A DNA stretch of 27,944 nucleotides from a virus. A program made the position numbers and the translations under genes. How positions within the stretch are numbered: the first letter of the stretch is position 1; every line of letters starts with the position of its first letter. The stretch lies in the IMG/VR virus record IMGVR_UViG_3300046656_000276, positions 1 to 27,944 of that record, one strand, 5' to 3'. This document shows positions 16,697-27,944 of this stretch, one piece after another. The notes under the pieces were generated by a model that saw only the letters and a list, made by a program, of their open reading frames with translations, ran no database searches and was not told where the DNA came from.

Positions 16697-16735
16697 GCCG
16701 ACGCGGCGTCCTGATTGAGGGGACGCCGCGTCGGC
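16697..16735 (-). terminator. Perfect 15-bp hairpin after the major capsid gene
   Basis: Bases 16697-16711 and 16721-16735 are perfect reverse complements (GCCGACGCGGCGTCC against GGACGCCGCGTCGGC) with a 9-base loop. The stem is very GC-rich and sits in the 98-base gap between the capsid stop and the connector start. On the minus strand the following bases ACCAGCAAAATTG are not a U tract, so a classical intrinsic terminator is not shown. A partial terminator or an mRNA-stabilising 3' end that boosts capsid protein is likely. Confidence 0.75.
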
Positions 16736-19694: not shown

Positions 19695-20486
19695 GGCCTG
19701 TTCCTTGTTCGGGTTTGCCAGTTCGGCAAGAAATGCATCGTAATCTTGCACGCGGTCGGCGAACCCGGCCGCTACAGCTTGTTTGCCATACAGCACGCGC
19801 GCGTCGACCGCGGCGATCTGCGCTGGCGACATGCGTCGGTGCTCGCCGACGACTTCGAAGAGTGTTGCGGCCGCGGCGTCGACGAGTTGTTGCGTCTCTT
19901 CGAGCTCGGCTTTTGAGATCGGCATGTCCGGATAGCCGTCTGCCTTGTGTGCGCCGCTCGTGACAAACGCGATGCGCAACCCCATACGCTCGTTCTGTTG
20001 CGACCAATCGGGGCGAACTTGAATGACGCCGACCGAGCCGACCAACGCAGATTCGGTCACGACGATCTCGTCCGCTGCGCTCGCGAGCACGTAGCCAGCG
20101 CTGGCCGCCTTGCCGTCGACGAACGCATACAAACGCTTGCCGGCGAGTTTGGATGCGGCGCGCAGATGACGCGCGAGCTCGCAACAGCCGGACATGTCGC
20201 CACCGGGCGAGTCCATGCGCATCACGACGTTCGGCGGACCTGCAGCGAACGCCGCAGCGAAACGCGCTTGAATCGACTCGTACGAGTCGTCCCAAGACGA
20301 CGCGAGCCGACACAACGGACCGCGCACCGAAACGATGGTTGCAGTTTCGGTCTCGATGTTTTCCGGCGCTTGGCGCAAGTCGAACTTCATGAAGAACGCT
20401 TGCGGATCGACGGCGAGCAGCCCGGTGCCGTCGTATCGTTTCTTGCCGTCGAGAGGCAAAGCAGCTTGCAACAGTCGCCATGTCAT
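18966..20486 (-). CDS. Prohead protease (S49 family) with C-terminal scaffold
   Basis: A 506-residue protein; ATG 20486 overlaps the portal stop (ATGA). Residues 30-250 form an S49/SppA-type serine protease. MDSPGGDMSG (91-100) is the oxyanion-hole loop, ASAGYVLASAAD (128-139) carries the nucleophile Ser129, and SGAHKADGYP carries Lys181, the general base. The 52-residue gap between the two equals that of lambda gpC (Ser166-Lys218). From about 265 the chain is helical and then strongly acidic, low-complexity (about 300-370, rich in Glu/Asp/Ala/Gly), followed by a coiled segment and a basic/polar C-terminus: a scaffold. The protease matures the head and removes the scaffold. Confidence 0.88.
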   Translation of the reverse strand: MTWRLLQAALPLDGKKRYDGTGLLAVDPQAFFMKFDLRQAPENIETETATIVSVRGPLCRLASSWDDSYESIQARFAAAFAAGPPNVVMRMDSPGGDMSGCCELARHLRAASKLAGKRLYAFVDGKAASAGYVLASAADEIVVTESALVGSVGVIQVRPDWSQQNERMGLRIAFVTSGAHKADGYPDMPISKAELEETQQLVDAAAATLFEVVGEHRRMSPAQIAAVDARVLYGKQAVAAGFADRVQDYDAFLAELANPNKEQAMKYKDARAALETIAKEDSDEGRAAKRALAAMDAKPEGDDKKEDKPADGAEGGGGEADAADDDCEPGAEDDAAEPGAEDATDDAVDDKDKKPPAGADAGAQALAEVRQLSASIEKRERTAQKTADNAERARLLASRPDLNDDTRNALKKAPLATVRAMVQSLPRGRTPKPVVTTASATRGASQTDNAQTEHKLSANAKRSLDARMGMLSDKPNVLRTEHKLSLGYVAPVQSLAEALENDGQRD

Positions 20487-21880
20487 GCGGCCGCTTCCTC
20501 CTCGTCGTCGTCGACATCGATCTGTGGCTCGTCGTCGGCTTGCGACTGCGGGACGAGCGAAATACGAGCGGCGCCGGCACCTGTCGGAGCTTCGTTGCCG
20601 GTCGCGTTGCTGCCACCGACGAGCGGAATGCTGAAGCGCTCGCACATCGTCCGAACGTCGAGCTGCACGCCTTGGCCGGCCAATGCCTCGTTCAAGAGCT
20701 TGATAGCATTCGCGGCCGTCACGAGCGACTGCGCTTCCGAATTGCGGTCTTTGGGTGGCGTGACGTCCCATTCGACAACGACGAAGCGCGAAATGGCTTC
20801 CTCGCCGTAGCGATAAACAACATATGCCGGCAGCCCCTGCGTGTTGAGTGTGTAGGCGAGCCCTTCAGCCGTGCTCTTGATCAGATCGGCGCGGATCGTC
20901 TTGTGCACGTCGGAATTCTGGAAGCCGGCGCCACCGTCGACCGTGACCGTCTGGCCGGCGATCGTAATAATGATTTCTTGGTTCTGATCAGCAATCGTCT
21001 TGTTGAACGAATCGAAGCCGCGGCCGTTGCTTTCGAGCAGCTTCACCTCGTAGCCAACCGGCAGTTGGAACACGGTATTGACGCCCCATGCCATGACGCG
21101 CTGCAGCAGTCCCGCGCGCTGCTCTTCGGTGGCACCGGGCGGAGCCTGCGCGACGCGAGCGGGGTTGGCGAGCTTGGCTTCCCAATTATCCTTGTACAGC
21201 GACGCGTGGTCCTTACGAATGTACGCGCGACCAATGGGACGCCACAGACCGTTTTGCCATGGCGCCATGCGGCCACCAGGCGTATGCAGGATCCAACGGC
21301 CGTCGCCCGGCGTTATCGGCAGCAGGCCAGCAATGCTGCGGTAGTACCATTGATTCTCGGACCACCGGTACGATAGGAATTCTGGATCGAGCCGGACGAA
21401 GATTGGGAAGTCGCGTCCTTCGACTGGAAGCAACTCGCCGACGCCAACGCCGAGCAATTCGCCATCTGCAGCAAGCAACGCGAGTTCGGTCGGTGGGAAC
21501 ATCTCATCGAATTCGCTGCGCACGTCGTCGTGGCCGAGCTCGAGCGAACGGATGACTTCTGTGTCGCCTCGGAATTTCTTCGGCAGCCGCACCAGACCAC
21601 CGGTGCGCGTGCTCAGAACACCAGACACGATACCGTCTTTGCGCGCGCTGCGCATGAGCCGCGCGGCCATCGCCAAATTGCCGTTGTCGGCCAGATGTTC
21701 GGCGTCCTCGAGATCGCTCAAATACCAGCGCGTCTTGGTATAGACGATCGGCGAGATCTGTCCACCTTGCGCGCGGCGGATCTCTTCGACTTCCGGCGAA
21801 TCTAGAGACAGACCACCCCTCGGCGCGTTTTGATATGCCGAACGACCGAGAAGAGCGCTAACGACCGTACGCCAGCTCAC
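20483..21880 (-). CDS. Portal protein (DUF935, Mu gp29-like)
   Basis: A 465-residue protein starting at GTG 21880 with no strong ribosome-binding site. Features of the DUF935 portal family are visible: DGIVSGVLSTRTGGLVRLP near residues 80-100, ELALLAADGELLGVGVGELLP, RWILHTPGGRMAPWQNGLWRPI, and near the end NGRGFDSFNKTIADQNQEIIITIAGQT (stem). The C-terminus is acidic (DDEPQIDVDDDEEEAAA). Portal dodecamers form the DNA entry vertex and dock the terminase. The following gene is protease/scaffold; a Mu gpF-like minor head protein usually found between or after these is not present in the window. Confidence 0.88.
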   Translation of the reverse strand: MSWRTVVSALLGRSAYQNAPRGGLSLDSPEVEEIRRAQGGQISPIVYTKTRWYLSDLEDAEHLADNGNLAMAARLMRSARKDGIVSGVLSTRTGGLVRLPKKFRGDTEVIRSLELGHDDVRSEFDEMFPPTELALLAADGELLGVGVGELLPVEGRDFPIFVRLDPEFLSYRWSENQWYYRSIAGLLPITPGDGRWILHTPGGRMAPWQNGLWRPIGRAYIRKDHASLYKDNWEAKLANPARVAQAPPGATEEQRAGLLQRVMAWGVNTVFQLPVGYEVKLLESNGRGFDSFNKTIADQNQEIIITIAGQTVTVDGGAGFQNSDVHKTIRADLIKSTAEGLAYTLNTQGLPAYVVYRYGEEAISRFVVVEWDVTPPKDRNSEAQSLVTAANAIKLLNEALAGQGVQLDVRTMCERFSIPLVGGSNATGNEAPTGAGAARISLVPQSQADDEPQIDVDDDEEEAAA

Positions 21881-22992: not shown

Positions 22993-23198
22993 CACCAGCT
23001 ACCGGCGATACCGTACGTGTCCTTGAGTAGACCCTGCGACAGTTCGTTCGGTCTCGAAACACCCGACGCCCAACGCGACACGGCTGCAGTCGACACCTTC
23101 ATGCGTTTCGCCATCGAGCGACGCGATGTCTTCTGCAGTGCAGCGAGCAACGTACGACGGCCCTGCGAAATCTTTTCCTTGCTCTTCTTCTTAGTCAT
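22992..23198 (-). CDS. Cro/XRE-type helix-turn-helix protein
   Basis: A 68-residue basic protein, ATG 23198 overlapping the terminase stop by 8 bases. Residues 28-50 are a clear helix-turn-helix: SMAKRMKVSTAAVSRWASG, with VSRWASG as recognition helix, flanked by a very basic N-terminus (TKKKSKEKISQGRRT). It is the size of Cro-type regulators. Translation is coupled to the terminase gene. It could regulate the following small genes or the late genes by binding the TGTGACC boxes upstream of the portal gene; the sequence does not tell. A DNA-recognition role in packaging is the alternative. Confidence 0.78.
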   Translation of the reverse strand: MTKKKSKEKISQGRRTLLAALQKTSRRSMAKRMKVSTAAVSRWASGVSRPNELSQGLLKDTYGIAGSW

Positions 23199-24852
23199 CT
23201 TGTTTCCAGGTCTTTTCGGCTGCGTATGGGTCGAACACCTGCTCGACGTCGTGCGGTGAATCATACTGTTTTGCAACATTTGGTGGCAAGTCCCCTCCTT
23301 GCAGCGAAAGCGGCTCCCACGTAGAAAGCGCAAGCGCGTCAAATGTGTCCGGCGACCGTCCGAGCACTTTCCGAATTTCGTCTTTCGGCGTGACCTTGAT
23401 GCGACCGTTCGTGGCCTGGTAATACTCGAATTGATGCAACTCTTTGGCGAGCTCGCCGTCTTCGACGATCGCGCCACCATCTCGAAACCAGCTGTCGAGG
23501 TTCGCGACGAGCTCGTCACGCATGCGATCATAGACTTGCGGCTTGCGCACAGCACGATCGCTCGCGCGCACCGCGACAAGTTCGAACATGCCCACGTTAG
23601 CCGGCAGTTCGAGGAAATTGCGCATCCGACCGAACAAGCTCGAACCAATAGAACCCTCGCGATCCATGACGACGACCGGCGTTTCGCGCGGCAATTTGAG
23701 CTCATTCAGCAACGCGACGAGTCGCACGAGGTGCTGTTCGTCGTTGAGTCCGGTGAATTTTTGTGCACTAAGCATCTTCAGACCGCGCCGCGGGACGAAC
23801 ACAGTCTTGTCGCCGGTGCCGGTCTCGCCGGCTGGATCGAGTCCGACGAACAAGCGCCCGGCCGGCTCGGTCTCTTGCCACCGACGTTCGGACATCATTA
23901 TCGTGTGGACGCTGAAGATTTTGCCTTCCTCGTGCAGCGCATGCTCGCCTTTGACGCGAATTTTGTATTGCGCGCTGTCTTCGCCCCATTCGAGCTTCTT
24001 CTCGTCGATCCACTCTTGTGTGGCGAGTCCAGGAATCGAGCCGTCGCGGTTCACCGCGGCCGCTTCTTCACTCGACACGGTCAACGTCTTATAAAGCTTC
24101 TTTTTGCTGTCGAACGCGTCGTAGAATTCACCCGAATTACGCGTCGGGTTACTAAATAGACACACGCGCGCGCCACCGGCGCGGTTGCCTTCGATAGCTT
24201 CGAAGATCTCGTCTGAGATGCCGGACGCCTCGTCGGGCAAATAGAGCAAATTTTTGCCCGAAATGCCGGCCACGGCTTCAGCTTCGCGCGCGGTGAAACC
24301 CACAACTTCGCGGAAGTCGGCCGATTTGAGACCAGTGCGCGCGAGCTCGCCTTGCTCGCCGTCGATGAGCGACGAATGTTCACACGGCCGCGTAATGCGC
24401 AGTCCGCTCGGGTCTTCCGCCTTGCATTCGAGACAACGACCACCGCGCGCACGCAACATGCGCAGTTCGCGCCACAAAATCTGGTCGACCTGTCGCGACG
24501 TCGTCGAAGTAAAGATTGCGCGCGCGTCGTCGAAACTGCAATACCACCACAGTGCAAGAATCGCGGCCGTTGTGCTCTTACCTATCTTGTGGCCGGAACG
24601 CACAGCGACGCGCGGATGGTCGCGCACAGCTTCCAAAATTTCACATTGCCGCTCCCACGGTCGGATTCCGAGGATCTGGCGCGCGAACAAGACCGGGTCT
24701 TTTTGATATAACGGCGACGGAAACCGAACTCGAGTCGAGAATGTGAGCTCAACGCGCAGCTTTTCGAGCAAATCTTCAGCAAACGTGTACGCCTGCTGCT
24801 TCTGCTTGTTGCGCTTGCGTTGGTCGACTTCGTGCTCGATCGTCGTCGTCAC
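23191..24852 (-). CDS. Terminase large subunit
   Basis: A 553-residue protein starting at GTG 24852 (GTGA overlap). The ATPase has Walker A SGHKIGKST (86-94), Walker B LLYLPDE (202-208) and a SNPT coupling segment (234-237). The RNase H-type nuclease domain shows VGLDPAGETGTGDKT (Asp339), VVVMDREGS (Asp397) and SPDTFDAL (Asp502/Asp505). It translocates and cuts DNA during head filling and interacts with the portal. Residues 137-160 contain Cys140, Cys143, Cys157 and His159 (RCLECK then PCEH), a possible zinc-binding insertion. N-terminal DPVLFARQILGIRPWERQ resembles other phage large terminases. Confidence 0.93.
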   Translation of the reverse strand: MTTTIEHEVDQRKRNKQKQQAYTFAEDLLEKLRVELTFSTRVRFPSPLYQKDPVLFARQILGIRPWERQCEILEAVRDHPRVAVRSGHKIGKSTTAAILALWWYCSFDDARAIFTSTTSRQVDQILWRELRMLRARGGRCLECKAEDPSGLRITRPCEHSSLIDGEQGELARTGLKSADFREVVGFTAREAEAVAGISGKNLLYLPDEASGISDEIFEAIEGNRAGGARVCLFSNPTRNSGEFYDAFDSKKKLYKTLTVSSEEAAAVNRDGSIPGLATQEWIDEKKLEWGEDSAQYKIRVKGEHALHEEGKIFSVHTIMMSERRWQETEPAGRLFVGLDPAGETGTGDKTVFVPRRGLKMLSAQKFTGLNDEQHLVRLVALLNELKLPRETPVVVMDREGSIGSSLFGRMRNFLELPANVGMFELVAVRASDRAVRKPQVYDRMRDELVANLDSWFRDGGAIVEDGELAKELHQFEYYQATNGRIKVTPKDEIRKVLGRSPDTFDALALSTWEPLSLQGGDLPPNVAKQYDSPHDVEQVFDPYAAEKTWKQDD

Positions 24853-25253
24853 GTCGACATCAACGCGGCCGCGCCGTCGAGCGCTTGCCGCGCCGAGCCA
24901 ACAACGCCGGCGAGATCGGCATGTGCAAGCGACACGACCTCCGACGTGAGCACTGTGAGATCTTTAGCGCCGCGTTCGACTGCGCGCGTCAACGTGATTA
25001 CCGAATACGACAGATCTTTGCGCGTCGATTCGGAATGCTCGGCGAATTCGCGCCACGAGCGATTGATTTCGGCTTCGCACGCTTCGCGCATGGCCGCACA
25101 ACGCGACTGCAGCTCCGCTGACCCCTTCGCATGATCGGCATCGAATTCGCCGAGCAAGGTGATTTTTTCGAGCAGAGTCGCACGATCGGCCAGCAGTTGC
25201 TCGCGTCGCGCGTCGCGGCGTTTCACAGTCTCATCGAATTTACTCACCGGCAT
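24849..25253 (-). CDS. Coiled-coil protein preceding terminase
   Basis: A 134-residue protein starting at ATG 25253; the start overlaps the previous gene by ten bases and follows AAGGAGAA. It is almost entirely helical and charged: VKRRDARREQLLADRATLLEKI, MREACEAEINRSWREF, then STRKDLSYSVITLTRAVERG. A small terminase subunit can be of this size and usually sits directly before the large subunit, so this is one candidate, but no helix-turn-helix is seen. Other candidates are the HTH proteins at 27258 and 22992. Function is unproved. Confidence 0.68.
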   Translation of the reverse strand: MPVSKFDETVKRRDARREQLLADRATLLEKITLLGEFDADHAKGSAELQSRCAAMREACEAEINRSWREFAEHSESTRKDLSYSVITLTRAVERGAKDLTVLTSEVVSLAHADLAGVVGSARQALDGAAALMST

Positions 25254-25677: not shown

Positions 25678-25874
25678 CACGAACGCCGACCGATGAAGCC
25701 GGCGCGGCACAGCTCTTCGAGCTGCGCGAGTGCGTGTTTGTCGCCGGCCGCGACGCGTTGGCACAATGCGACGATGCGCGGATCGCACGCGTCGAGTGCG
25801 TCGGCACGAGCGAACTGCGCCGCGCCGGCGAGCCAATGGCGGGCAAGATCCTCAGGTTGTTGGTTTCGGTGCAT
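25677..25874 (-). CDS. Small helical protein
   Basis: A 65-residue protein, ATG 25874, overlapping the preceding gene by 23 bases, which is longer than the usual overlap and makes the start less certain. It is helical and Ala/Leu rich (PEDLARHWLAGAAQFARADAL, LAQLEELCRAGF) with three cysteines. Its stop overlaps the next start (TGATG). No family recognised. Confidence 0.55.
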   Translation of the reverse strand: MHRNQQPEDLARHWLAGAAQFARADALDACDPRIVALCQRVAAGDKHALAQLEELCRAGFIGRRS

Positions 25875-26073
25875 GGCGGTGTCCTTGAATAACGAGCGTT
25901 GCGCCTGACCAGAAATCGAAACTCCAGATACGCGCGTCGCTCTCGTCTTCTGGTCGCATCTCCTGCCAAAGTCCGTACGTGGTCACGGTCGTTGTACCAA
26001 CCGGTTTCACCGGCACGCCGGCGATCCTCGTCGGCAGCGGCCGCAGCCGCGGAGTGTGCAAACGCCGCGTCAT
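25852..26073 (-). CDS. First gene of the second early unit, uncharacterised, leaderless start
   Basis: A 73-residue protein, ATG 26073. The start codon lies only six bases downstream of a -10-like TATCTT, so its mRNA probably begins at or very near the ATG. The start codon itself is inside one arm of a 13-bp inverted repeat (26064-26076), so a bound repressor would cover it. The protein has a basic Pro-rich N-terminus and a beta-type middle (KPVGTTTVTTYGLWQEM, ARIWSFDFWSGATLVIQGH). Function unknown. No ribosome-binding site is visible, which agrees with a leaderless start. Confidence 0.6.
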   Translation of the reverse strand: MTRRLHTPRLRPLPTRIAGVPVKPVGTTTVTTYGLWQEMRPEDESDARIWSFDFWSGATLVIQGHRHAPKPTT

Positions 26074-26106
26074 GGGACGAAGATAACACGCACCCCATGA
26101 CGCGGC
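26064..26106. repeat. Perfect 13-bp inverted repeat spanning a start codon
   Basis: GCCGCGTCATGGG at 26064-26076 is the exact reverse complement of CCCATGACGCGGC at 26094-26106. The arms are 17 bases apart (30 bases centre to centre, about three helical turns). The left arm holds the start codon of the 73-residue gene and the right arm lies in the promoter spacer and -35. It is the strongest operator candidate in the window. Confidence 0.72.
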
Positions 26107-26116
26107 AAGGGGGCGG
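26080..26116 (-). promoter_or_regulatory. Promoter A with CCGCCCCCTTG and CGTCATGGGG
   Basis: On the minus strand TTGCCG (-35, 26103-26108) and TATCTT (-10, 26080-26085) are 17 bases apart, and the -10 ends six bases before ATG 26073. CCGCCCCCTTG (26106-26116) and CGTCATGGGG (26093-26102) are shared exactly with promoter B at 27179-27231. It lies in the only gap of the 26350-22092 array and so should drive the run of genes from 26073 through terminase. Confidence 0.6.
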
Positions 26117-26350: not shown

Positions 26351-26532
26351 TTCGTCGACATCCAAATGCGTTTGGCGTGGTCGAGCAATTCGCGATGCTC
26401 GGGACACAACGCGAGAGCAAGCGCGGCCGGGTTGAGCTCGCGAACGAGCAGGATAGCCAGCACGGCGACACCTGCAGCGTCCGGCGAGAGTCGTTGGCTG
26501 CGTGCGAGACACGCGGTACAGTTGTATGACAT
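26347..26532 (-). CDS. Small zinc-binding type protein
   Basis: A 61-residue protein, ATG 26532 sharing a base with the previous stop (TGATG). It carries C5-x2-C8 (CTAC) near the N-terminus and CPEH (Cys43, His46) near residue 45, a plausible zinc site, with a hydrophobic helix in between (AAGVAVLAILLVREL). This helix is long enough to be membrane-inserting or a buried core. Function unknown. Confidence 0.62.
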   Translation of the reverse strand: MSYNCTACLARSQRLSPDAAGVAVLAILLVRELNPAALALALCPEHRELLDHAKRIWMSTK

Positions 26533-27074
26533 CAGATGTCGAGCCCCCTGTACTGCGTGACGAAGATGAACCGGCCGGCGTTGCGCGTATACGGCTCGGC
26601 CGCGAACGCGCGACCAGCTCCTCGGTACTCGTACTGCCAGCCGGTCAATTCTTGAGCCAGCTCGGCCGAAGTGTCATCGAAACCGAGCTCCCGGACGCGT
26701 TCGCGATCATAGACAGCCCAACACAAGCTCGAGCCCTCGTCGTCACTCGCGCGGCAACCGGCCGCGATAAGCGCACCACCATTGGACAACGCGTCCCAGG
26801 CTTCCTGCGTGCACGCCAGCGCGTATCGCGCGCACGCAGCTTCGTCGCGAGCGAGCCGCGCGGCTTCGGTGGCCTGCAGCTGCAGCAATGCGACGTGCTC
26901 GAGCGTTGGGAAGACATAACGTGCACCATACCGGCGCGGTAACTTGTCGAGCTCGATCGCGACCTCGTACGCCTTGCGTGCCACTTCGGACGCGCCGGCC
27001 GACAATTTTTGGAAATGCGCCGCGCGCTCGACGAGCTCGTCGGCTTCAGCCATGAATTCGGGGTTTGGTCTCAT
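26532..27074 (-). CDS. Uncharacterised helical protein
   Basis: A 180-residue protein starting at ATG 27074, overlapping the tiny upstream gene by four bases (ATGA). Residues 1-110 are helical (EADELVERAAHFQKLSAG..., VALLQLQATEAARLARDEAAC). The second half has a Gly-rich turn and aromatic beta segments (SLCWAVYDRERVREL, then TGWQYEYRGAGRAFAAEPY, RFIFVTQYRGLDI). No family recognised. It is the largest unit of the first small-gene cluster, so an early takeover or anti-host role is conceivable, with no direct evidence. Confidence 0.68.
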   Translation of the reverse strand: MRPNPEFMAEADELVERAAHFQKLSAGASEVARKAYEVAIELDKLPRRYGARYVFPTLEHVALLQLQATEAARLARDEAACARYALACTQEAWDALSNGGALIAAGCRASDDEGSSLCWAVYDRERVRELGFDDTSAELAQELTGWQYEYRGAGRAFAAEPYTRNAGRFIFVTQYRGLDI

Positions 27075-27178
27075 TTGGTTCCTTCGCAACGATGTGGGAA
27101 CGGGCGCCCAGCAGCACCCAGGATGACAACGCGGCCGCAGCATGCGCAACGCGGTCTATGATCTGTGGTCGTCTTCAT
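27071..27178 (-). CDS. Tiny CxxC zinc protein, leaderless start
   Basis: A 35-residue protein, ATG 27178. It contains Cys11, Cys13, Cys14 (CACC) and a C-terminal HRC (His29, Cys31), so a single zinc site is likely, in a basic Gly-rich frame. The stop overlaps the next start (ATGA), which supports it as a true gene. ATG follows a perfect 14-bp palindrome and a -10 seven bases upstream, with no ribosome-binding site. It is therefore the first gene of a leaderless transcript. Confidence 0.6.
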   Translation of the reverse strand: MKTTTDHRPRCACCGRVVILGAAGRPFPHRCEGTK

Positions 27179-27231
27179 ATTTACTAGTAAATCACAGCCC
27201 CATGACGTGCACAAGGGGGCGGGGTTAATGG
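27179..27231 (-). promoter_or_regulatory. Promoter B with a 14-bp palindrome before the start codon
   Basis: Minus strand: CCGCCCCCTTG (27212-27222), TTGTGC as -35 (27209-27214), CGTCATGGGG (27198-27207) in the 17-base spacer, TTTACT as -10 (27186-27191), then ATG 27178 seven bases after the -10. The -10 lies inside ATTTACTAGTAAAT (27179-27192), a perfect palindrome touching the start codon. Upstream, TTAATG / CATTAA (27225-27240) forms a short hairpin. Confidence 0.6.
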
Positions 27232-27257: not shown

Positions 27258-27866
27258 TCATTTGTAGGTCTCGAGGACGGCCAGAACGTCCTTGGCTGCG
27301 GCCGGGTGCTTGCCGAGCACTCGAACGATGGCGCGCGCGAGCCGCTGCCATTCCGGGTGTTCTCGCACAAGTTTGTCTTCGAGCATCATTTTAGAGAGCT
27401 CGAGCTTGTGCCGCAAACCGAGCAGGCTACCCTCTGCGGCCGTGAGCTTGATGGTCTCGGATGGCAACAGACCTTCCGCCGCGGCCGTCGTTCGGAGCCG
27501 AGTGAGCAGCCGATCGCAGGCTTCGAGCGTTGTTGGTTGACCCGTCGGCGACAATTGATCAGGTGGCTGCCTGACGTCTGCTGCCGTCTGGCCGGGCATA
27601 GTCACCCATGCCTGTGGCGGTATGCCGTACAGTGTATGCAATTTGGCACGCGTATCGGGTGCTGGTACCTTCCGACCGTATTTCCAATCGACCACGGTTT
27701 GGCGCGAGCGGACGCCGGTCGCAGCCCGCACCTGCTCGAGCGACTTCTGCACCAGCAGTAGCAATCGCTGGCCTTCATTGCGGACAGCAAGCTTGTCTGG
27801 CGGACCGTCTGCAATTGCTGTCTGTTCGTCGTCCTGTTTCACGTGACGTACTTTCTGTGTTGTCAC
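27258..27866 (-). CDS. Helix-turn-helix protein, regulator or small terminase candidate
   Basis: A 202-residue protein, GTG 27866, with no ribosome-binding site. Residues about 34-86 are an XRE-type helix-turn-helix (LLLLVQKSLEQVRAATG, RSRQTVVDWKYGRKVPAP, RAKLHTLYGIPPQAW). Residues 110-202 are helical and resemble the oligomerising C-terminal half of small terminase proteins (LLTRLRTTAAAEGLLPSETIK, then EHPEWQRLARAIVRVLGKHP). It may be a small terminase or an autoregulator; both use HTH DNA binding. It is the first gene of the leftward array in this window, preceded by a gap containing CGTCATGGGG, so control of its own gene and of promoters A and B is a reasonable guess. Confidence 0.75.
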   Translation of the reverse strand: MTTQKVRHVKQDDEQTAIADGPPDKLAVRNEGQRLLLLVQKSLEQVRAATGVRSRQTVVDWKYGRKVPAPDTRAKLHTLYGIPPQAWVTMPGQTAADVRQPPDQLSPTGQPTTLEACDRLLTRLRTTAAAEGLLPSETIKLTAAEGSLLGLRHKLELSKMMLEDKLVREHPEWQRLARAIVRVLGKHPAAAKDVLAVLETYK

Positions 27867-27944
27867 TTATGAGACGTTACGTGCTCACGTCATGGGGTGT
27901 CCGCTAACCCGGACTACGAAAGATCTCCGGAGCGTTCTTTCGAC
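27867..27944. promoter_or_regulatory. Gap at right edge with operator copy C and a 7-bp hairpin
   Basis: CGTCATGGGG at 27888-27897 lies on the plus strand, i.e. opposite in orientation to copies A and B. On the minus strand CGGACA and TAACGT, 18 bases apart, lie just before GTG 27866, a weak promoter-like pair that would also be leaderless. CGAAAGA (27917-27923) and TCTTTCG (27936-27942) form a 7-bp inverted repeat with a 12-base loop holding CTCCGGAG. A divergent rightward promoter may begin here, but its gene is outside the window. Confidence 0.4.

What the first reader, a model, noticed from the sequence alone, without database searches (positions are those of the whole stretch)
26064..26106. 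Perfect 13-bp inverted repeat covering a start codon and its promoter
GCCGCGTCATGGG and its exact reverse complement sit 30 bases apart centre to centre, on one face of the helix. The left arm contains the ATG of the 73-residue gene and the right arm covers the promoter spacer and -35. Such a site would let one regulator block both transcription and ribosome binding of the run of genes that includes terminase.
Basis: seen in the sequence. Interest (0 to 1): 0.72.

Follow-up and report, generated by a model that had tools for sequence, protein, structure and literature searches.

The report
Phage accessory-gene promoter with repeated operator
The inverted repeat is two copies of a short, probably protein-binding, box placed around a promoter for accessory genes of a bacterial virus; the same box stands at two other control points of this virus, so it looks like part of a shared on/off switch rather than an isolated oddity.

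Summary
The 13-bp perfect inverted repeat (26064-26106) is real and rarer than chance (0.03 expected per window for loops up to 30). Its core, CGTCATGGG, occurs six times in the window against 0.27 expected. Four copies are intergenic: the two arms, 27199 and 27888. On the minus strand, 27222-27176 repeats the promoter side of the dyad: CCGCCCCCTTG-N3/4-CGTCATGGGG-N6-(-10)-N7-ATG (21 matched bases; best of 4000 shuffled pairs 16). The arms are not conserved: in relatives the slot between the TerS-like and TerL genes holds unrelated cargo. In three of four 46-kb relatives tested, the cargo promoter carries a dyad that recurs between divergent CI-like and Cro-like genes. By analogy the window's boxes are probably operators of its own repressor, whose gene lies outside this 28-kb fragment. 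Not shown: which protein binds, whether it represses, and whether the gene starts at ATG 26073 (leaderless) or GTG 26016.

The parts
26064..26106 (-). 13-bp perfect inverted repeat, 17-nt spacer, centred on the -10 region of promoter B
26106..26116 (-). CCGCCCCCTTG block, includes the -35-like TTG; identical to 27212-27222
26093..26102 (-). box B, CGTCATGGGG (most of the right arm)
26068..26076 (+). box B', CGTCATGGG in the opposite orientation (left arm)
26081..26086 (-). -10 region of promoter B (TTATCT; TATCTT one base on), 6-7 nt before the ATG
25852..26073 (-). 73-codon frame; ATG 26073 (leaderless start) or GTG 26016 with GAGGA; no relative found
27212..27222 (-). CCGCCCCCTTG block of promoter A
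27198..27207 (-). box A, CGTCATGGGG
27179..27192 (-). perfect palindrome ATTTACTAGTAAAT over the -10 (TTTACT) of promoter A
27071..27178 (-). 35-codon frame MKTTTDHRPRCACCGRVVILGAAGRPFPHRCEGTK placed after promoter A; its stop overlaps the ATG of 26532-27074; codon score poor (-0.29)
27888..27897 (+). box C, CGTCATGGGG, between the probable genome end and the TerS-like gene; no CCGCCCCCTTG block
27258..27866 (-). Cro/CI-type HTH protein, probably small terminase subunit
23191..24852 (-). large terminase subunit, downstream in the same overlapping gene run

Best explanation
The repeat is the operator of a regulated promoter (B) for accessory ('moron'-type) genes lying between the TerS-like and TerL genes of a phage that probably infects Myxococcota. 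A sequence-specific regulator recognises the asymmetric box CGTCATGGG(G). The box stands once at promoter A (start of the cargo block), once near the genome end before the TerS-like gene (C), and twice, face to face, at promoter B, where the two copies flank the -10 and cover the first codon. Bound protein on both sides of the -10 would keep RNA polymerase out. The most likely binder is the phage's CI- or Cro-like protein, so that cargo expression follows the lysis-lysogeny switch. Transcription from B probably starts at or next to ATG 26073 (leaderless), as promoter spacing suggests in five relatives. Shown: the repeat, the recurrence of the box, the identity of A and B, the arrangement in relatives. 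Inferred: protein binding, repression, identity of the regulator, leaderless start.
For: CCCATGACG/CGTCATGGG occurs 6 times in the window, expected 0.27, 0 of 100 shuffles reach 6; 4 of the 6 are intergenic, although called gene lengths sum to 26,562 of 27,944 bases. A and B share an 11-mer and a 10-mer in register, and the box-to-ATG distance is 19 nt in both; the best of 4000 shuffled pairs has 16 matched bases, observed 21. C shares exact 12-mers with A and with B. In relatives G001, G007 and G014 the cargo promoter has TATAAT 6-7 nt before ATG/GTG, the only such match in each 46-kb record, overlapped by a dyad TATMRCG-N4-CGYKATA. Further sites of 13-14/14 lie between divergent CI-like and Cro-like genes (G001:20061; G007:45598 and 45695; G014:42687, with 42600 at 12/14); 14/14 sites had null mean 0.0 in 40 shuffles per genome. 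The CI-like protein matches HTH_3 (2.7e-6) and phage repressor families.
Against: The window holds no CI-like gene, so the regulator is unseen. The relatives' dyad pattern was written after seeing its sites, so the null is optimistic; G014 has two more 13/14 sites elsewhere (7009, 28593). A pattern-free test (longest shared word between cargo promoter and CI/Cro region) supports G007 (15 nt, 0.4% of random stretches), is borderline in G001 (9 nt, 5%) and fails in G014 (7 nt, 79%) and G016 (8 nt, 63%). G016 has no such dyad at either place. -35 and -10 of B are weak (8/12). Two further CGTCATGGG copies lie inside genes (5138, 12815). The box-to-ATG spacing at B is not fully independent evidence, because that ATG is part of box B'. 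A leaderless start would make the first 19 codons of the 73-codon frame real, yet they score badly, and so does the 35-codon frame at A.
Confidence: 0.62

Rival explanations
1. RNA hairpin: in mRNA read through from promoter A the two arms pair (13 bp, 17 with G-U) 10 nt after the stop of the 26117-26350 gene, acting as attenuator, processing or stability element, like the hairpins found after the major capsid gene in this family.
For: Stem predicted on the minus strand, best 50-nt fold -29.7 kcal/mol; helix of 17 with G-U pairs on the mRNA strand; the second strong hairpin of the window sits after the major capsid gene, where many relatives have one of different sequence.
Against: The fold is only moderately better than shuffles (9 of 200 as good; 12 of 200). 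No run of T after it. It does not explain boxes A and C, which have no second arm, nor the shared CCGCCCCCTTG block.
Confidence: 0.15
2. The box is a DNA site of the TerS-like HTH protein (packaging site C next to the genome end), with A and B as extra copies that let it control transcription too, as the first reader suggested for the 27258-27866 protein.
For: Box C lies 47-56 nt from the probable cos end, just before the TerS-like gene; the protein has a Cro/CI-type HTH part.
Against: In 7 of 7 relatives tested the stretch before the TerS-like gene shares no more words with the cargo promoter than shuffles do. Small terminase subunits are not usually promoter regulators (recalled).
Confidence: 0.13
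3. Chance repeat: a GC-rich genome gives an occasional 13-bp dyad.
Against: Recurrence of the box and of the A/B element.
Confidence: 0.06
4. Start-codon sequestration: the stem hides ATG 26073 in mRNA to stop translation.
For: The ATG is inside the 3' arm.
Against: GTG 26016 with a GAGGA lies outside the stem, and the codons after it score better.
Confidence: 0.04

Closest known systems
Cluster A mycobacteriophage operators and stoperators (L5, TipsytheTRex; PMC9283540, abstract and passages read)
   Same: Asymmetric box of about 13 bp repeated at promoters and short intergenic gaps of one phage genome.
   Different: Only four intergenic copies seen here (28-kb fragment), in both orientations; no repressor identified. 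L5 has more than twenty, oriented with transcription.
Lambda-type CI/Cro operators (recalled)
   Same: In three relatives the cargo dyad is shared with a divergent CI-like/Cro-like intergenic region.
   Different: Operator copy placed at an accessory-gene promoter between terS and terL; in the window the box is asymmetric and the CI region is not in the record.
Moron (accessory) loci with their own promoter (PMC7067206, passages read)
   Same: Extra genes with a promoter of their own inserted among structural genes.
   Different: Here apparently tied to the phage switch; expression untested.

Membership tests
sigma-70 promoter | -35/-10 hexamers at 16-18 nt | tested here: inconclusive
   B: 8/12 (4+4), A: 7/12; about 0.10 expected by chance at B
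sigma-70 promoter | transcription start at the predicted place | not testable with these tools
   needs RNA data
phage operator (repeated regulator box) | same sequence at several control regions of one genome | tested here: met
   CGTCATGGG 6 seen, 0.27 expected; 4 intergenic; A/B element
phage operator (repeated regulator box) | bound by a regulator of that phage | not testable with these tools
   no CI-like gene in the record
CI/Cro immunity operator | copies beside the repressor gene | tested here: inconclusive
   seen in relatives G001, G007, G014; not in G016; region absent from the window
L5-type stoperator | asymmetric 13-mer, many copies, oriented with transcription | tested here: not met
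   four intergenic copies, both orientations, fragment only
intrinsic terminator | GC-rich stem directly followed by a T run | tested here: not met
   tail GTTTGCAC on the mRNA strand, AAGGGGGC on the other
moron / accessory locus | genes absent from relatives at a syntenic slot | tested here: met
   26532-27074 and the 61-, 77-, 73- and 65-codon frames have no homologue in that slot of the relatives
leaderless gene | start codon at the transcript 5' end | tested here: inconclusive
   -10 to start codon 6-7 nt in window A and B and in five relatives; no transcript data
Rfam RNA element | match at gathering score | tested here: not met
   0 matches in the window

The most novel reading that the evidence does not exclude
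A dual-use dyad. As DNA it is a face-to-face operator over the -10. As RNA it can form only in read-through mRNA from promoter A, where it hides the AUG; mRNA starting at promoter B begins at that AUG, lacks the 5' arm and stays open. One sequence would then make the gene obey its own promoter alone, at both transcription and translation.
Probability: 0.1. Interest if true: 0.7.

Novelty: new variant of a known kind. Interest (0 to 1): 0.45.

Why it matters
Phages of Myxococcota are little characterised (recalled). The finding points to a possible general arrangement: a variable cargo slot between the small and large terminase genes, with its own promoter, often spaced as for a leaderless start, carrying a copy of what looks like the phage's switch operator. 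If true, cargo genes of such phages could be found from DNA alone by looking for the operator, and the cargo would be tied to the lysis-lysogeny decision.

Tried and rejected
Conservation of the arms: the exact repeat is absent from viral contigs. The composite box pattern was found once in viral contigs (L114) and once in 377 Myxococcota genomes (L115), about what 18 fixed bases give by chance (my estimate); L115 lies inside a gene and L114 in an unrelated record. Relatives of the 73-codon protein: none in viral contigs or phages; a weak hit in L046 lies upstream of its TerS-like gene, outside the slot, and I set it aside as chance after viewing the DNA; a weak hit of the 77-codon protein in L046 is also outside the slot. 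Relatives of 26532-27074: none. Intrinsic terminator: no T run. Rfam: nothing at gathering score; one 9.9-bit match far below its threshold. Shared 8-mer GCCGCGTC with the hairpin at 16697-16735: chance level. My first working view, an RNA hairpin of the same class as the one after the major capsid gene, was demoted when the box was found at 27199 and 27888. My first count of leaderless-looking starts included L035 and L036; I dropped them because the frame that looks like a real protein starts at a later ATG with an upstream GGAG (read by eye). The second half (relatives' gaps) read some loci on the wrong strand and is not used; replace it. TerS-like protein as regulator: tested, not supported in 7 relatives. 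Its structure: mean pLDDT 68, HTH part confident, no PDB match at E 0.001 or better, so the TerS reading rests on position. G006 and G017 were fetched too but not scanned for the dyad; one search found no relative of the G001 CI-like protein in them.

Full report
Observation. The window is a 27,944-base virus record. Arms 26064-26076 and 26094-26106 are exact reverse complements with 17 nt between them. In 60 second-order Markov simulations the mean number of perfect repeats with arms of at least 13 and loops up to 30 was 0.033 per window. The window has two such: this one and 16697-16735. Both lie in gaps between genes; my own gene caller gives 43 genes whose lengths sum to 26,562 of 27,944 bases. 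Over the window and the long pieces of eight relatives, arms of 12 or more with loops up to 25 number 7 in 36 kb outside called genes and 4 in 303 kb inside (tiles overlap by 100 bases).

Surroundings. Everything near is on the minus strand: TerS-like HTH protein (27258-27866), a 183-nt gap, gene 26532-27074, 61- and 77-codon genes, the gap with the repeat, the 73-codon frame, 65- and 84-codon frames, two small genes, TerL (23191-24852), a short HTH protein, then further genes down to a Mu-type portal (20483-21880; Pfam Portal_Mu 3.1e-38). From 26073 to TerL the genes overlap. Relatives with TerL at 51-66% identity show the order TerS-like - cargo - TerL - short HTH - portal. The cargo differs: the 26532-27074, 61-, 77-, 73- and 65-codon genes have no homologue in that slot. 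The stretch between TerS-like gene and TerL runs from 35 nt to 3.8 kb. Five of the six genome-contig matches are titled uncultured delta proteobacterium, Polyangiaceae or Myxococcales; the sixth and weakest is titled Actinomycetales. 10 of 377 genomes of the phylum of one of these carry a TerL relative. Myxococcota is therefore the likely host phylum.

The box. CCCATGACG (reverse CGTCATGGG) occurs 6 times, 0.27 expected, none of 100 shuffles reaching 6. Two copies are the arms, one is at 27199-27207 in the gap after the TerS-like gene, one at 27888-27896 before that gene, and two lie inside genes. Reading the minus strand, 27222-27176 is CCGCCCCCTTG-TGCA-CGTCATGGGG-CTGTGA-TTTACT-AGTAAAT-ATG and 26116-26071 is CCGCCCCCTTG-CCG-CGTCATGGGG-TGCGTG-TTATCT-TCGTCCC-ATG (splits mine). 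The two exact words sum to 21 bases; the best of 4000 shuffled pairs reached 16. A looser local alignment of the two whole gaps was beaten or matched by 1 of 200 shuffles. The box at 27888 shares 12-mers with both. The repeat therefore arises because promoter B has a second box in the opposite orientation on the far side of its -10. The -10 of promoter A lies inside a perfect 14-bp palindrome.

Relatives. Directly after the TerS-like gene, L011, L013, L041 and L045 have TATAAT 6-7 nt before ATG or GTG, and L043 has GATACT at 6 nt (read by eye). That is 5 of the 12 cargo-bearing relatives whose gaps were printed. L035 and L036 have a promoter-like stretch but a later likely start; the other five show no such promoter. 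In the 46-kb records G001, G007 and G014 (which hold L013, L045 and L041) the pattern TATAAT-N5-8-RTG occurs once, at this promoter. A dyad TATMRCG-N4-CGYKATA overlaps it. Further sites of 13-14/14 lie between a CI-like gene (HTH_3, phage repressor families) and a divergent small HTH gene that I call Cro-like from its position and weak matches. Sites of 14/14 number 2 (G001), 1 (G014) and 2 (G007) against a null mean of 0.0 in 40 shuffles each. Caveats: I wrote the pattern after seeing the sites; the pattern-free word test is clear for G007 only, borderline for G001 and negative for G014. G016, which has a CI-like gene (37% identity), shows no shared site.

Mechanism. I commit to a repressor-operator reading: a phage regulator binds CGTCATGGG, and at B two bound copies flank the -10 and the first codon. 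Its gene would lie beyond the record; in G014 the CI/Cro-like pair lies about 10 kb beyond the TerS-like gene. A leaderless start at 26073 is likely but not certain (my estimate 60:40 against GTG 26016).

Genome end. The window ends 78 nt before the TerS-like gene. Of 18 loci carrying that gene, 11 come from records that also end within about 420 nt before it. CCGG or GCGG begins at offset 14 in the window and in L039, L040, L043, L047, L048 and L049, and at 9-13 in L034, L036 and L050; L033 and L042 lack it. I read this as the cos end, and the HTH protein as TerS.

Hairpins after the capsid gene. In 14 of 19 informative relatives (L075 ends too soon) the best 50-nt fold in the 110 nt after the major capsid gene is -24 kcal/mol or lower, against 26% of 600 control stretches; at -29 or lower it is 8 of 19 against 4.8%. 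Helices of 13 or more pairs (G-U allowed) occur in 9 of 19 against 21 of 2000 control stretches. L057 and L058 are near-identical. L059, L060, L061 and L073 lack a hairpin, and L076 has a tRNA-Met gene there. Most hairpins lack a T run, though L065 to L069 have 4-5 T in the next 8 bases. This is a separate matter from the finding but was the first rival explanation for it.

Literature seen: PMC9283540 (abstract and passages), PMC7067206 (abstract and passages); other papers as search listings only. Leaderless lambda cI mRNA and the moron concept are otherwise recalled. The searches listed no paper on this phage group; that is not proof of absence.

Noticed in passing
window 16697-16735 and L057-L076: Strong hairpin in the gap after the major capsid gene, recurring in position but not in sequence in most relatives, mostly without a T run; L076 has a tRNA-Met gene at that place.
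   Followed up: partly
window 27944 end; starts of L033, L034, L036, L039, L040, L043, L047-L050: Contig ends coincide just before the TerS-like gene, with CCGG/GCGG at offset 14 in seven of them including the window: probable cos end.
   Followed up: partly
L012 1014-1048, L039 1004-1038: Terminator-like hairpin with T run between TerS-like gene and TerL; the two records differ by paired (compensatory) changes in the stem.
   Followed up: partly
window 25036-25156: 15-bp perfect inverted repeat with 91 nt between the arms inside gene 24849-25247.
   Followed up: no
G014:42187-43302, G007:45286-46310, G001:19486-20404: Divergent CI-like / Cro-like HTH gene pairs with repeated dyads between them: probable immunity regions of phages likely to infect Myxococcota.
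   Followed up: partly
L035 5488-7836: TerL of this record is split by about 1 kb of extra sequence between residues 92 and 93 of the query (intron or inserted element).
   Followed up: no
G006:99-347: Two inverted repeats (arms 13 and 15) close to the record end, with related sequences.
   Followed up: no
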